This document shows, piece by piece, positions 3,576-9,308 of a stretch of 62,398 nucleotides of DNA. Location: assembly GCA_009380095.1 (NCBI GenBank), contig WHSL01000006.1, positions 1 through 62,398 of the forward strand. Direction: 5' to 3'. The notes under the pieces are model-generated. The model was not told the DNA's origin. It made no database searches and saw only the letters and a program-made list of their open reading frames with translations. The stretch is from Streptosporangiales bacterium. Its GTDB lineage: Bacteria > Actinomycetota > Actinomycetes > Streptosporangiales > Streptosporangiaceae. The translations under genes were made by a program, and so were the position numbers. Position 1 is the first letter of the stretch; each line of letters opens with the position of its first letter.

Positions 3576-4388
3576 TCAGCCGGCGGCGGCCTTCGCCCTG
3601 GTGAAGACGGTATCGAGCATGTCCTCGGTGACCCGGCCGGTGAAGGTGTTCTGCTGGCTGGGGTGGTAGCAGCCGAGCAGGTGGGTGGGGTGGCCGGTCC
3701 CCGGCCGGGGGCCGAGGGTGACCTCGGCGCCGTGGCCGAAGGCGGGTCGGGGTGGCGGGGGCAGGGCGTAGCCGGCCTGGCGGAGCGCGGGCCAGAGCGC
3801 CTGCCAGCCGTACCCGCCGAGCACCACGATCGCCCGGACATGGTCGGCGACGGCGATGAGCTCGTGGGCCAGCCAGGGGGCGCAGGTGTCGCGCTCCTCG
3901 GGGGTCGGCTTGTTGGCGGGCGGGGCGCAGCGGACCGCCGCCATCACCCGGGTGCCGATCAGCCGCTGCCCGTCCCCCGCGTGCGTGCTCTCCGGCCGCG
4001 CGGCGAGGCCCACCCGGTGCAGCGAGGCGAACAGCCAGTCGCCGCTGCGGTCGCCGGTGAAGATGCGGCCCGTACGGTTGCCGCCGTGTGCCGCCGGGGC
4101 CAGGCCCACGATGAGGATGCGGGGCTCGTCGGCGCCCCAGCCGGGTATGGGGCGGCCCCAGTACCGCTCGTCCGCGTGCGCGCGGCGCTTCTCCACCGCC
4201 ACCCGCTCGCGCCACTCCACCAGGCGCGGGCAGGCCCGGCACACCGACTCCCGCGCCGCCAACTCCCCCACCCCGGACGCCCCGGCAGCCAGCCGCCGCA
4301 CCTCATCCGCGTCGTGCGCGACGGGGGTGCCCTGGGTGGCGGGATCGCCGGGCCAGCCGGTCCCCGGCGCGATGAAACGCTCACTCAT
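3576..4388 (-). CDS. Family 5 uracil-DNA glycosylase (UdgB-type)
   Basis: A 270-residue base-excision repair enzyme. CRACPRL near residue 42 and the later C...C pair ([20 protein letters not shown]) supply the four cysteines of the Fe-S cluster found in family 4/5 glycosylases. [21 protein letters not shown] is the family-5 motif 1, with alanine where family 4 has glutamate. The late HPSQQNTF holds the conserved histidine. Family 5 enzymes remove uracil and often hypoxanthine. The open frame extends upstream to 4787 inside araC, but homology starts at the ATG at 4388. That ATG overlaps the araC-type stop by 8 bases, so the two are translationally coupled. Confidence 0.85.
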
Positions 4389-5342: not shown

Positions 5343-5404
5343 ATGACAGCGACTTCACCGACAACGCTGGTCCTCGCGGGGACGGGGAAGACCGGACGCC
5401 GCGT
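5343..5404 (+). pseudogene. 5' remnant of NmrA-like NAD(P)-binding oxidoreductase
   Basis: Only the first ~20 codons of a recognisable gene remain. TTLVLAGTGKTGRRVV is the beta1-GxxGxxGR-helix start of NmrA/SDR-type NAD(P)H-binding proteins. Around 5400-5425 the frame runs straight into the antisense of the decayed pilin-like gene. NmrA-type genes are commonly found divergent from cupin-AraC regulators, as here, so the identification by neighbour is consistent. The remainder of the gene is absent. Confidence 0.65.
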
Positions 5405-6092
5405 CGTGTCCGGGCTCGTAGCGCGTGACCTTCCGGAGGGGGATGTCGCGAAACTCCTCCAGGACGTCCTCGTCCAGGAAGAACGCGTCTCCGTACTCGT
5501 CGCGGATCTCCTCCTGGGCCGACTCGACCCGATCCCTCCACTCCTCGTACTGCTCCTCGGACTCGAAGTCGCCGCGCTGCTGGTCCTCGCCGGTCCACAT
5601 GTAGTCGCCACCGACCGTGGCGTTGAGCCCGATGCCGCCGACCTGCGCGCCGAAGCCACCCCGGAGGTCGAGGCCCTGGGAGTTCCCTTGGCTGGTGGTG
5701 ACGGAGTAGCCGCCCTCCGGAGTCTCGGTGAGGTTGGTGGATTCGCGGTCCTCCTCCGCGTAGAGCACCACCTTCGTGCGCTGGACGCTCTCGTCCAGCT
5801 ACCCGCGGACCGTGCAGGAGTTGATGTCCGGCGTGCCGGGCGGTGGGGCCTTCGCCGGGGCGCACTTGCCGCCGACCACGCGGCAGACGGCGGCCTCGAG
5901 ATCGGTGGGCAGCAGGCGGTATCCCCCGGCGCCGACGAAGATGCCGGTGAGCACGGCGACGGCCACCAGGGTCAGGCCGACGTACTCGAGCATGCCCTGG
6001 CCGAGATCGGTGCGCCCAAGATCACGTAAGGTGACGGGCCGGTTGCGCCCTCGCCATGCGCCATACAGTGGCGGGTTGAAACCGGTTCTCAC
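5405..6092 (-). pseudogene. Decayed partial copy of the pilin-like/beta-rich surface protein
   Basis: The reading frame matches the 781-residue neighbour from its pilin-like segment (GQGMLEYVGLTLVAVAVLTGIF) through CRVVGG, PGTPDINSCTVR and GGDYMWTGEDQ to EEFRDIP, then stops matching near 5420. Three lesions are visible. The frame is one base off relative to the ATG at 6057 that corresponds to the neighbouring lipoprotein start. An in-frame TAG lies at 5801-5799, where the intact gene has a sense codon after SCTVR. The entire 3' half is missing, abutting the NmrA stump. The first ~15 codons resemble the lipoprotein start (ITTRDLERT versus VTLRDLGRT), so the copy joins the lipoprotein's beginning directly to the pilin-like domain. 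Confidence 0.75.
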
Positions 6093-6123
6093 AGGGCCCA
6101 GGGGCCCAATCCGGGACGCCCTC

Positions 6124-6141
6124 TTGTCACGTGATTGACAA
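6124..6141. promoter_or_regulatory. Palindrome TTGTC-N8-GACAA (copy 1)
   Basis: TTGTC (6124-6128) and GACAA (6137-6141) form an inverted repeat with an 8-base spacer. The same arms and spacing recur at 9226-9243, at the equivalent position upstream of the intact lipoprotein gene. It is probably a shared operator. Confidence 0.5.
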
Positions 6142-6163
6142 ACGGGCGTCCCGAATCGCCGGG

Positions 6164-8509
6164 TCAGTCGCCGGCCTCACACTCCACCCAGGGCACCATC
6201 TCCCCGGTCTGCGGATCGCGGTACGTCGCGTCCTCCAGGTCCATCGTCTGAGTGGACGTGGTGTTCTGGTACGCGCCCAGCTCGATGATGAACGAACCGG
6301 ACAGGTCGGTGCCGTCGGTCTCCCGCGCGCTGTCGTAGTGCTGCTCGGTGACGACCGTGTCCGGCCGGTCGTACATCGGGGCGATGTCCACCGCCGCGTT
6401 GAGCCGCTCCTCGAAGTCGCCGTGGATGTAGTCGTCCATGACGTCGGCGTCACCCGGCTCCAGCGGGATCGTGGTGGTGGTCACGACCACGTCGCCGTCG
6501 GAGAGCTCCTTGCCGGCGAAGCCGCCCGCGCCCTGCTCGTTGTCGGACTCGGTGCGGCCGGAGGAGCCGGGCGACTGGCGGCCGCCCGGCTCGATGGTGT
6601 AGCCGACGCCGATCCCGCCCTCGATGTGGTACTGGGTGGTCCGGGTGACGACGAGCTCGGTCGGGTTCCCGTCGGCGTCGTACTTGACCTCCATGACGTT
6701 CTCCGACTGCCACTTGGGCGCCACGCTCGCCTCCGGCCCCAGGCCCTGGAGGTCGACGGAGACGCCCAGCGAGAGGGCGAACTCGTCGCTGATCACGCGG
6801 TACTCGCTGGTCGTCCGGTTGCCCTCGGCGTCGTAGTGCTCACCGGTGCCGATCAGGTGCGACTCGCTGTACCCGGCGCCGACGCCCAGCTCGGCCTCGA
6901 GGCCCTTGACGCCGGTGGAGCCCTCGTCGAAGCCGACCGACGCCTCCGCATCGATGCCGACCGTGTCGCCGTCGGCGTGCATCCGGGAGTAGGGCAGCCC
7001 CATGTCCGCGGCGACCTGCCGAGGCACGTCCTGGAACTCCTCCCACTCCTCGTCGGACATGTCGAAGATGTCGCCGCCCGCGTCCTCCAGGAAGTCCTGG
7101 TAGGCGTTGTCCACCGCCTCCTGGAACTCCGCCTGCTGCTCGTCGCTCTCGAACTGCACCTGGGTCTGGTCCTGCCCGGTCCACAGGTAGCCGCCGCCGA
7201 TGCTGGCGCCGATGCCGATGCCGTTGACCTTGACGCCGACGCCCAGCCGTACGTCGAAGCCGGAGGCGTCGGAGTCGCCCTCGGTCACCGAGATGTTGCC
7301 GTCGGGGCCCTCGGCGACGTTGACGCTGTCCTTGTCCTCGTCGGACCAGATGAGGACCTTCGTGCGCTCGACGTGTTCCTCGAGGTCGGCCCGGACGGTG
7401 CAGGAGTTCACGTCCGGCGTGCCGGGGATCTCGGCCGCGGACACCGGGCAGTCGCCGCTGACGACGCGGCAGATCGCGTACTCCAGCCGGGGCGGCAGCA
7501 GGTGGTAGGCGCCGGACGTGACGAAGATCCCGGTGATCACGGCGACCGCCACGAGGGTCAGGCCGACGTACTCGATCATGCCCTGGCCGCTGTCGCCGCT
7601 GAAGACCAGGTCTCCCCGGACCCCGGACGCCCGGCGGCGGCCGCCGGTCAGCGCGCGCAGGCCCGCCGCGACGAGTCCGCCGAGCAGGCCGCCCGCCACC
7701 AGCGCCGCCCACTCCAGCGCCCCCACGGTGCGCAGCGCCGCGAGACCGCTCACCGGCAGCGCGAGCAGGGTGCCGGCGCCCAGCACCACCGGCAGCGTGA
7801 GGGCTCCGGTCAGCGCCCACCACGGAGACCGACTCCTGGGCAGCGCGACCACGCCGAGCAGGCCGCCGATGGCCGCGCCCACCCCCGCCGCCAGCGGCGA
7901 CCACGTGGTCACCGCGTTGAGGCGGGCGAGGACGTCATCGGTGATGCCGCCCACCGGCCCGGCCAGGTCGGCGGGGACCAGCATCTCGATGAGCGTCAGC
8001 CGTACGGCCAGCAGGGCGATCAGCCCGGTGGCGCCGGCCAGCAGCGGCACGGCCAGCAGCGGGAACCGGGCGGTGGCCCGGCCGGTCAGCACGCCAAGCA
8101 CGACGGCGACCTCGAGCACACCGATGCCGGCCAGCCAGCGCGCGAGCGACCCCTCGCCCTCCATCAGCGGCGCCATCAGCACGATCGGGGTGAGCAGCCC
8201 GAGGGTCACGCCCGCCGTGAGGCAGGCGGGGCGGGCCTCGTCGAGCGTCCCCCGCGTCCACAGGCCGGTCTCGGTCTCCCACCCGGGACGGCCCACCGGC
8301 GGGGTGCCGAACCAGGCCGCGGCCGCCGCCGCGAGCAGCCAGACGGCGACGCCGTACGGGGCCGTGGTGGCGGCGAACCCGCCGTCGGCGGCCAGCAGCG
8401 CGTCCTGCCCGCCGCTGCCCACGGGGCTGCGCAGCAGGATCAGTCCGAGGGCCGCTCCGAGCGCCGCGAGCAGGCCGGCGGCGTAGGGCTTCGTACGCAG
8501 GTCCATCAT
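6164..8509 (-). CDS. Multispanning membrane protein fused to a pilin-like segment and beta-rich extracellular domain (unknown function)
   Basis: This 781-residue protein is not one I can name. Residues 1-295 contain about eight hydrophobic helices. Near residue 315, SGDSGQGMIEYVGLTLVAVA resembles the processing site and hydrophobic stalk of Flp/TadE-type pilins (G-Q-G-x-x-EY). It is followed by a cysteine pair in CRVVSGDCP and another cysteine in VNSCTVR. The remaining ~430 residues are acidic, lack hydrophobic helices and show alternating GVGVKVNGIGIGASIGGGY-like and LGVGAGYSESHLIGTGEHYD-like strands, suggesting a beta-rich surface domain. The ATG overlaps the lipoprotein stop (ATGA), so the pair is co-translated. 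It may be a surface fibre or adhesin; this is inference. Confidence 0.65.
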   Translation of the reverse strand: MMDLRTKPYAAGLLAALGAALGLILLRSPVGSGGQDALLAADGGFAATTAPYGVAVWLLAAAAAAWFGTPPVGRPGWETETGLWTRGTLDEARPACLTAGVTLGLLTPIVLMAPLMEGEGSLARWLAGIGVLEVAVVLGVLTGRATARFPLLAVPLLAGATGLIALLAVRLTLIEMLVPADLAGPVGGITDDVLARLNAVTTWSPLAAGVGAAIGGLLGVVALPRSRSPWWALTGALTLPVVLGAGTLLALPVSGLAALRTVGALEWAALVAGGLLGGLVAAGLRALTGGRRRASGVRGDLVFSGDSGQGMIEYVGLTLVAVAVITGIFVTSGAYHLLPPRLEYAICRVVSGDCPVSAAEIPGTPDVNSCTVRADLEEHVERTKVLIWSDEDKDSVNVAEGPDGNISVTEGDSDASGFDVRLGVGVKVNGIGIGASIGGGYLWTGQDQTQVQFESDEQQAEFQEAVDNAYQDFLEDAGGDIFDMSDEEWEEFQDVPRQVAADMGLPYSRMHADGDTVGIDAEASVGFDEGSTGVKGLEAELGVGAGYSESHLIGTGEHYDAEGNRTTSEYRVISDEFALSLGVSVDLQGLGPEASVAPKWQSENVMEVKYDADGNPTELVVTRTTQYHIEGGIGVGYTIEPGGRQSPGSSGRTESDNEQGAGGFAGKELSDGDVVVTTTTIPLEPGDADVMDDYIHGDFEERLNAAVDIAPMYDRPDTVVTEQHYDSARETDGTDLSGSFIIELGAYQNTTSTQTMDLEDATYRDPQTGEMVPWVECEAGD

Positions 8510-9159
8510 CCGCCGTCCTCGGTCACGCGGATCGTCGAGATCACCGCGTCGATCTGCGGCCGCGCCGCGTCGTACGCCGCCGCCGGGTAGACGAGGCGGA
8601 TGTCCGCGATCTCCTGGCGGCTCACCCGTATGTACACGTCCACCTGCCGGATCGGCAGCGTGGCCTGGCCCGCCGACGCCGTGTACGCCTGGCGGAGCAC
8701 GTACGCCTCGCGCCCGCCGGCCTCGATCCGCTTCCGCTCCAGCACCTGGCCGTCGCGCTGCGTCTTGGCCACGCCCGCGTAGTGGTCCACCAGGGACGTG
8801 ACCGACTGCTGCTCGCGCTCCACGATCGCCGCGAACGTGCCCTGCGGCAGTCCGCCGGGGGTCCGCGGCCCGGCGACCTCGAAGTCCGCGCCGGGGATCA
8901 GCCGCCGGTTCTTGGGCGGGGCCTTCCAGCCCTCGGGATAACCGGCCCGCAGGCCGTCGTCCGTGTAGACGGCCATGCCGTCCGGGACCTCGCCACCGCC
9001 GGCGTCGCCGGAGCCGAACACGTCACCCACGCCGCAGCCGGCGGCCGACGCCGCGATGGCCAGCGCGACCGGCGCCGTACGGGCCGCCCGTCTGAGGCGC
9101 GCGCCCGTCACGGTCCGTTCAAGATCACGTGTGGTGATCGGCTGGTTCCATTTCGCCAT
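8506..9159 (-). CDS. Putative lipoprotein coupled to the pilin-like gene
   Basis: A 217-residue protein. A charged leader (MAKWNQPITTRDLERT...) is followed by a short hydrophobic stretch ending AIAASAAGCG, a plausible lipobox. The mature part (GMAVYTDDGLRAGYPEGW...) resembles actinobacterial LpqN/PsbP-like substrate-binding-type lipoproteins: a single alpha/beta domain ending with DAVISTIRV. The leader before the hydrophobic part is unusually long for a lipoprotein. I chose the ATG at 9159 rather than the upstream extension to 9210 because the duplicated copy near 6057 conserves the ATGGCG start. Its stop overlaps the next gene, so lipoprotein and membrane protein are probably partners. Confidence 0.65.
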   Translation of the reverse strand: MAKWNQPITTRDLERTVTGARLRRAARTAPVALAIAASAAGCGVGDVFGSGDAGGGEVPDGMAVYTDDGLRAGYPEGWKAPPKNRRLIPGADFEVAGPRTPGGLPQGTFAAIVEREQQSVTSLVDHYAGVAKTQRDGQVLERKRIEAGGREAYVLRQAYTASAGQATLPIRQVDVYIRVSRQEIADIRLVYPAAAYDAARPQIDAVISTIRVTEDGG

Positions 9160-9225
9160 GAGGCGACACTGGCGTGCCGGGCCGCGTTCTCCCAGGGCCC
9201 AGGGACCCAATCAGGCCGCGCCCGC

Positions 9226-9243
9226 TTGTCCCCTAGAGGACAA
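9226..9243. promoter_or_regulatory. Palindrome TTGTC-N8-GACAA (copy 2)
   Basis: TTGTCC (9226-9231) and GGACAA (9238-9243) form an inverted repeat upstream of the lipoprotein gene. The flanking CAGGGCCCAGGGACCCAATC stretch is nearly identical to that beside the site at 6124, so the whole promoter segment is duplicated. Confidence 0.55.
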
Positions 9244-9308
9244 CGGCCTGAAAACTTCCGGTACGGAAGTGGACCGGAAGAACCCCGGCCGGGGTGCCGG
9301 GGCCTGAG

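What the first reader, a model, noticed from the sequence alone, without database searches (positions are those of the whole stretch)
6164..9159. Unrecognised two-gene envelope system: lipoprotein plus pilin-like multispanning protein
One chain joins about eight membrane helices, a Flp/TadE-like GQG..EY stalk and a 430-residue acidic beta-rich domain. It is translationally coupled to a lipoprotein. If the pilin-like site is cleaved, the beta domain could be released or assembled as a fibre. No prepilin peptidase or tad genes are in the window.
Basis: partly seen in the sequence, partly recalled or inferred. Interest (0 to 1): 0.7.

Follow-up and report, generated by a model that had tools for sequence, protein, structure and literature searches.

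The report
Rearranged Tad-pilus cargo cassette
In this actinomycete a surface protein built on a pilus-type stalk, with its lipoprotein and membrane-protein partners, turns out to be a shuffled and fused copy of a widespread, uncatalogued gene cassette that shares its upstream DNA signal, and its stalk type, with pilus genes and toxin genes elsewhere in the genome.

Summary
In detail: the 781-residue protein has about eight membrane helices, an internal prepilin-type stalk (SGDSG|QGMIEY) and an acidic beta-rich domain, and overlaps an upstream lipoprotein gene by 4 bp. The "two-gene system" reading is only partly right. Related genomes carry a conserved, uncatalogued operon: stalk-beta, lipoprotein, small multi-TM protein (of 43 beta genes, 38 have a partner downstream, none a lipoprotein upstream). 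In two genomes the window's 8-TM part is a separate third gene, so the window holds a permuted, read-through-fused copy, followed by a decayed paralogue sharing its promoter and leader. The stalk is a module: here and in relatives it carries NlpC/P60, SGNH esterase, PT-HINT pretoxin, Ntox28, colicin-E3-type and calpain domains. In all nine stalk-positive relatives a stalk gene lies 2-7 kb from tadB/tadC. A dyad, TTGGGYCYNNRGRCCC, precedes both window copies, flp genes and most stalk genes (12 of 17 exact genomic hits) and recurs across genera. Prepilin peptidase and a tad locus lie on other contigs. Most likely mechanism: surface cargo of the Tad machine, processed by prepilin peptidase. Whether the beta domain is a membrane-active toxin or a pilus accessory/adhesin is unresolved.

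The parts
9195..9210 (-). Dyad TTGGGTCCCTGGGCCC, 36-51 bp upstream of the lipoprotein start
   Evidence: Exact pattern match; 0.01 matches expected in the window; same position relative to other stalk/flp genes
8506..9159 (-). Lipoprotein gene, 217 aa, Cys42 lipobox; belongs to the cassette lipoprotein family
   Evidence: 37% and 32% identity to lipoproteins of the same cassette in G088 and G299
6164..8509 (-). 781-aa fusion of 8-TM part, class III stalk and beta domain
7622..8509 (-). 8-TM part (residues 1-296); a separate third gene in G088 and G299
7448..7609 (-). Flp-type stalk (residues 301-354) with site SGDSG|QGMIEY and Cys347/Cys354
6167..7447 (-). Beta-rich acidic exodomain (residues 355-781), Cys370 and Cys777 conserved
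   Evidence: Profile built without it, stalk removed: E 2.4e-6; 33% identity to G088 relative, E 2e-59 with stalk; conserved Cys
6094..6109 (-). Second dyad TTGGGCCCCTGGGCCC, before the decayed paralogue
5355..6092 (-). Decayed paralogue: stalk and N-terminal part of a beta domain; leader ATG out of frame, in-frame TAG near 5800, truncated
   Evidence: 52% identity to residues 300-498 with 1 TAG; sequence
9065..9252 (-). Promoter and leader of the lipoprotein gene, homologous to 5962-6155 of the decayed paralogue
   Evidence: Local alignment score 123 against at most 65 in 300 shuffles

Best explanation
This is a rearranged member of a conserved three-part cassette (stalk-beta exoprotein, lipoprotein, multi-TM protein) that belongs to the Tad/Flp type IVb pilus regulon of Streptosporangiales-type actinomycetes. 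The beta domain is carried across the membrane behind an Flp-type helix. A TadV-like prepilin peptidase probably cuts at SGDSG|QGMIEY, which would also free it from the fused 8-TM part, and the stalk then anchors it in the membrane or enters the Tad filament as a minor subunit. The lipoprotein and multi-TM protein act with it at the outer face of the membrane. Shown by sequence: modular stalk, conserved cassette, permutation and fusion, shared upstream dyad, presence and linkage of tad genes. Inferred: cleavage, use of the Tad machine, binding of a regulator to the dyad, and what the beta domain does outside.
For: Class III motif and positive-inside topology. The same stalk in front of NlpC/P60, SGNH, PT-HINT, Ntox28, Cytotoxic and calpain domains. 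tad locus and prepilin peptidase in the genome; stalk genes 2-7 kb from tadB/tadC in nine of nine stalk-positive relatives (positions); a cassette inside a tad operon in L187. Dyad upstream of stalk and flp genes here and in other genera. Conserved cassette: 38 of 43 beta genes followed by lipoprotein and/or TM partner. Separate TM gene in G088 and G299, with homology of all three parts to the window. Duplicated promoter/leader.
Against: No direct evidence of cleavage or of Tad dependence. The window protein does not match the Flp or TadE profiles. The internal site after eight TM helices is unusual. In the nearest relative (L210) the +5 Glu is not kept (DRGEGPVGY), so that stalk may not be processed. 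TadB/C and A24 peptidase are near-universal in the clade, so mere co-occurrence says little.
Confidence: 0.68

Rival explanations
1. Toxin-immunity cassette: the beta domain is a membrane-active antibacterial toxin displayed or delivered on the Tad stalk; the multi-TM protein and the lipoprotein are immunity proteins, by analogy with S. aureus TspA and its polytopic immunity protein TsaI. This is a refinement of the best explanation.
For: Same stalk on PT-HINT, Ntox28 and colicin-E3-type toxins; in G023 beta cassettes are interleaved with such toxins next to the tad locus; partners follow directly, often with 4-bp overlap; orphan partner genes occur; amphipathic strands, z 2.0-6.6 in all 31; TspA/TsaI precedent (PMC7456083).
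Against: The beta domain is conserved over its full length, not swapped; cassettes are partly syntenic (beside purH in G000 and G037); no toxin fold or family detected; two partners of which either may be missing.
Confidence: 0.35
2. Tad accessory or adhesin: the beta domain is a pilus-tip or surface-adhesive part, and the lipoprotein and multi-TM protein are its assembly or anchoring factors. This is the alternative refinement of the best explanation.
For: Full-length conservation over 25 genera, invariant Cys, neighbours flp and TadG-like genes (L177, L184, L186, L187), shared dyad.
Against: Patchy: 70 of 299 genomes although T2SSF genes are near-universal; up to four tandem copies in one genome.
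Confidence: 0.33
3. The pilin-like motif is coincidental in function: an uncleaved polytopic envelope sensor or anchor with an outer beta domain, independent of Tad.
For: Internal site after eight TM helices; no profile match to pilins; +5 Glu not kept in L210.
Against: Unfused relatives begin with a short basic leader and stalk, as prepilins do; shared dyad with flp; tad linkage.
Confidence: 0.15
4. The fusion is an assembly or sequencing error, or a decaying gene.
For: The fusion is unique among the genomes searched; draft assembly of 413 contigs; decayed paralogue adjacent.
Against: One uninterrupted frame of 781 codons; promoter/leader homology shows a real duplication history; a single indel error cannot create the order lipoprotein - TM - stalk-beta.
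Confidence: 0.06

Closest known systems
Flp / TadE / TadG pilins and pseudopilins (PF04964, PF07811, PF13400)
   Same: Class III site, single stalk helix, tad linkage, dyad shared with flp; TadG-like proteins of this clade also carry NlpC/P60 or SLT domains
   Different: Conserved Cys at the stalk end, large exodomains, internal site after eight TM helices in the window; no Pfam match for the window protein
Polymorphic toxins with PT-HINT and variable C-terminal domains (PMC3482391; Flp pilins named once as a fused element in PMC12605009)
   Same: The same stalk is the N-terminal module of such toxins here
   Different: The window protein has no HINT or known toxin domain; its exodomain is one conserved family
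TspA / TsaI of S. aureus (PMC7456083)
   Same: Exported protein with a genetically linked polytopic membrane partner
   Different: T7SS substrate, unrelated sequence; toxicity of the beta domain untested
Kil, the Tad-like killing apparatus of Myxococcus (PMC8460266)
   Same: Tad machinery in antagonism
   Different: That paper leaves the toxin route open; no stalk-toxin fusions are described in the passages read
LpqN / PsbP-like lipoproteins (PF10738, PF18933)
   Same: Weak similarity of single cassette lipoproteins (E 5e-4 and 0.12)
   Different: The window lipoprotein itself gives no match

Membership tests
Type IVb (Flp/Tad) pilin or pilin-like protein | Class III site with Gly at -1 and Glu at +5 before one hydrophobic helix, basic leader | tested here: met
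   G308 / E313, basic loop before it
Type IVb (Flp/Tad) pilin or pilin-like protein | Match to Flp_Fap, TadE or Tad profiles | tested here: not met
   No family at E up to 1 for the window protein; a relative with the same stalk matches Flp_Fap at 5.6e-7, below the cut-off
Type IVb (Flp/Tad) pilin or pilin-like protein | tad locus and prepilin peptidase in the genome | tested here: met
   C261 tad locus and C6 peptidase; not on the window contig
Type IVb (Flp/Tad) pilin or pilin-like protein | Cleavage by prepilin peptidase and assembly into a filament | not testable with these tools
   Needs protein chemistry and mutants
Polymorphic toxin | HINT pretoxin or known toxin domain at the C-terminus | tested here: not met
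   None in the window protein or its beta relatives, though present on sister stalk proteins
Polymorphic toxin | Immunity gene directly linked | tested here: inconclusive
   Linked lipoprotein and multi-TM partners in 38 of 43 cassettes, immunity function unknown
Stalk-beta / lipoprotein / multi-TM cassette (defined here) | Homologous beta domain, lipoprotein and multi-TM protein in one operon | tested here: met
   All three parts match the cassettes in G088 and G299; order permuted and TM part fused in the window
LpqN/PsbP-like lipoprotein | Match to PF10738 or PF18933 | tested here: inconclusive
   No match for P0002; one relative each at E 0.12 and 5e-4

The most novel reading that the evidence does not exclude
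Streptosporangiales use a Tad-type pilus as a delivery or display platform for an arsenal: one dyad-marked regulon couples the pilus to stalk-fused toxins, wall hydrolases and a new class of beta-domain membrane-active effectors with lipoprotein and membrane immunity partners.
Probability: 0.33. Interest if true: 0.82.

Novelty: new variant of a known kind. Interest (0 to 1): 0.62.

Why it matters
A conserved cassette absent from Pfam, NCBIfam and PADLOC, a cross-genus upstream dyad, and one pilin stalk shared by toxins, wall hydrolases and beta-domain proteins make a testable case that Gram-positive Tad machines export or display diverse cargo. The permuted fusion in the window is the kind of Rosetta-stone event that argues the three partners work as one complex.

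Tried and rejected
Pfam, NCBIfam and PADLOC gave nothing for the window proteins. A first named-genome scan found no relatives; a 20-row alignment had no usable conserved stretch; a tighter alignment found ten named loci. AlphaFold: window C-terminus pLDDT 40, rejected; Actinomadura hibisca homologue pLDDT 56, pTM 0.51, long antiparallel strands; its Foldseek hits are outer-membrane barrels at low TM-score (about 0.1-0.2 of the query), taken only as 'long beta meander'. PDB sequence search with the beta profile: none; with the lipoprotein profile the top hits, ribosomal protein L3, were judged chance. That the 8-TM part is related to the 4-TM partner family is not supported. Motif counts with mismatches are no better than the reversed-pattern control; only the exact form and its position are informative. 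Tad co-occurrence by presence alone is uninformative. An acidic/basic count was made on a concatenated file and is replaced.

Full report
What is there. The large protein has eight hydrophobic segments, a basic loop (GGRRRASGVRGD), a class III prepilin-type site (SGDSG|QGMIEY; G308 at -1, E313 at +5), a ninth helix, and 434 residues after the stalk Cys that are strongly acidic (91 D/E, 22 K/R). Positive-inside counts put the C-terminal domain outside. No curated family matches either protein.

The stalk is a module. The genome (6.09 Mb, 413 contigs) holds 20 stalk matches. They sit in front of different exodomains: NlpC/P60 (C316), SGNH/GDSL esterase (C68), PT-HINT pretoxin plus a C-terminal domain (C330), a short Pro- and Cys-rich tail (C402), and four further beta-domain proteins on C22. 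In relatives the same stalk carries PT-HINT many times, Ntox28, a colicin-E3-type Cytotoxic domain and a calpain-type peptidase. One relative, G007, has 22 stalk matches; its contig C15 has the same length, 208,283 bp, as NZ_PYGA01000015.1 of Murinocardiopsis flavida.

The tad connection. Contig C261 holds a tad locus: CpaB/RcpC, TadZ fused to a TadE segment, TadE, TadA, TadB, TadC, histidine kinase, LuxR-type response regulator, flp. A single A24 prepilin peptidase is on C6. In all nine stalk-positive relatives a stalk match lies about 2-7 kb from the tadB/tadC pair (positions); some of these matches are flp itself, but larger cargo genes are also close in most. In L187 a beta cassette sits inside the tad operon, between flp and a TadG-like gene.

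A shared dyad. Upstream of the window lipoprotein, of the decayed paralogue, of three of the four C22 genes, of the C316, C68, C74 and C402 stalk genes and of the flp genes on C113, C261 and C353 lies TTGGGYCYNNRGRCCC. Of 17 exact hits in the genome (16 places, one counted on both strands) 12 are in this position; two more places are in the tad-related contig C316; two, on C310 and C311, are unassigned. A binomial estimate for 12 of 17 is 2e-38, but the pattern was derived from some of these sites, so it overstates the case. More independent support: in other genera the dyad scores at least 10 bits upstream of 35% of stalk genes against 5% of other genes, and many of those others are TadG-like or missed stalk genes. 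In the window there are two exact hits against 0.01 expected.

The beta cassette. A profile of the stalk-beta proteins matches in 70 of 299 genomes and 25 of 68 genera of the family (some weak hits are to the stalk part only). Named carriers include Nocardiopsis trehalosi, N. halophila, N. chromatogenes, N. endophytica, N. potens, Murinocardiopsis flavida, Actinomadura rayongensis, A. hibisca and Streptomyces sp. TP-A0874. Four cysteines are invariant in the ten-row alignment of the window and named loci. Of 43 non-redundant beta genes with enough downstream sequence, 26 are followed by the lipoprotein family, 33 by a small (about 130 aa) 4-TM protein and 38 by at least one of them; none has the lipoprotein upstream. 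Junctions to the lipoprotein are tight, mostly -4 to +20 bp.

The window copy is a permuted fusion. The window beta domain is divergent, but a 30-member profile made without it and tested without the stalk gives E 2.4e-6 (best of 200 shuffles 0.019). Its nearest relatives are in G088 (L210) and G299 (L211), where the order is stalk-beta, lipoprotein, separate multi-TM gene with a 4-bp overlap. All three parts match the window: stalk-beta 33 and 32% identity, lipoprotein 37 and 32%, TM part 38 and 34%. So the window order, lipoprotein and then 8-TM joined to stalk-beta, is a circular permutation with a read-through fusion. The region from dyad to leader of the lipoprotein gene (9065-9252) is homologous to that of the decayed paralogue (5962-6155; score 123 against at most 65 in 300 shuffles), and the lipoprotein N-terminus QPITTRDLERT mirrors the stalk leader RPVTLRDLGRT. 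The simplest history, which is inference, is tandem duplication of the cassette, loss of one stalk-beta body so that its promoter and leader now serve the lipoprotein, and fusion of the TM gene to the next stalk-beta gene; a further copy decayed (leader out of frame, in-frame TAG, truncation).

How it most likely works. The protein inserts by its TM segments and stalk helix with the beta domain outside; prepilin peptidase cuts after G308, which separates the 8-TM part from the stalk-beta part and restores the state of the unfused relatives; the stalk then stays as an anchor or joins the Tad filament. Fusion in front of a class III site has a parallel in the TadZ-TadE fusion of the same genome's tad locus. 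What the beta domain does is open. The toxin reading is favoured by the company it keeps: the same stalk on pretoxins, downstream partners, orphan partners, amphipathic strands. The accessory/adhesin reading is favoured by full-length conservation, synteny (beside purH in G000 and G037) and neighbours such as flp and TadG. Structure prediction was too weak to decide. The confidences of these two refinements (0.35 and 0.33) subdivide the best explanation rather than compete with it.

What is known. The 2012 survey of polymorphic toxins has no mention of pilins, Flp or Tad in the text held (PMC3482391). One 2025 paper lists Flp pilins among elements fused to ARC toxin domains (PMC12605009). Kil of Myxococcus is a Tad-like killing apparatus whose toxin route is open (PMC8460266). 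I found no description of the cassette or of the dyad; the library is open-access only, so absence is weak evidence. Hence 'new variant of a known kind': pilin-type stalks and toxin fusions are known, the cassette and the regulon are, as far as I could search, not described.

Noticed in passing
L073:5858-7513 (contig C261, minus); also L119:67-1674: TadZ-type ATPase fused in one frame to a TadE-type stalk, another case of a class III site deep inside a protein.
   Followed up: partly
L079:1465-2907 (C330, minus) and L112 around 5649-6845 (C203, plus): Stalk plus PT-HINT pretoxin in the own genome, and on C203 a similar stalk and HINT region split over frames with stops (broken copy).
   Followed up: partly
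L009:550-1659 and L184:5075-6265: TadG-like proteins carrying a transglycosylase SLT or an NlpC/P60 domain, i.e. wall hydrolases on Tad parts.
   Followed up: partly
L008:735-1169 and 3800-4231; L116:7484-7882; L120:13497-13937: DUF3592-like membrane proteins recur beside beta cassettes; one was confirmed by Pfam, the others judged by similarity of length and sequence only.
   Followed up: no
own-genome contigs C310:8922-8937 and C311:43574-43589: Exact dyad matches that are not near a recognised stalk or tad gene.
   Followed up: no
own-genome contig ends of C113, C149, C244, C261, C316, C353: Nearly identical flp pilin genes lie at contig ends, suggesting several flp copies whose repeats broke the assembly.
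   Followed up: no
L008 (C22) and L116: Beta cassettes lie directly beside purH in two families of the order, so at least this location looks vertically inherited.
   Followed up: partly
L113:2834-4315 (C313, plus): Stalk plus Pro-rich region plus a C-terminal domain that resembles from memory CdiA-type nuclease tips; no Pfam match.
   Followed up: no
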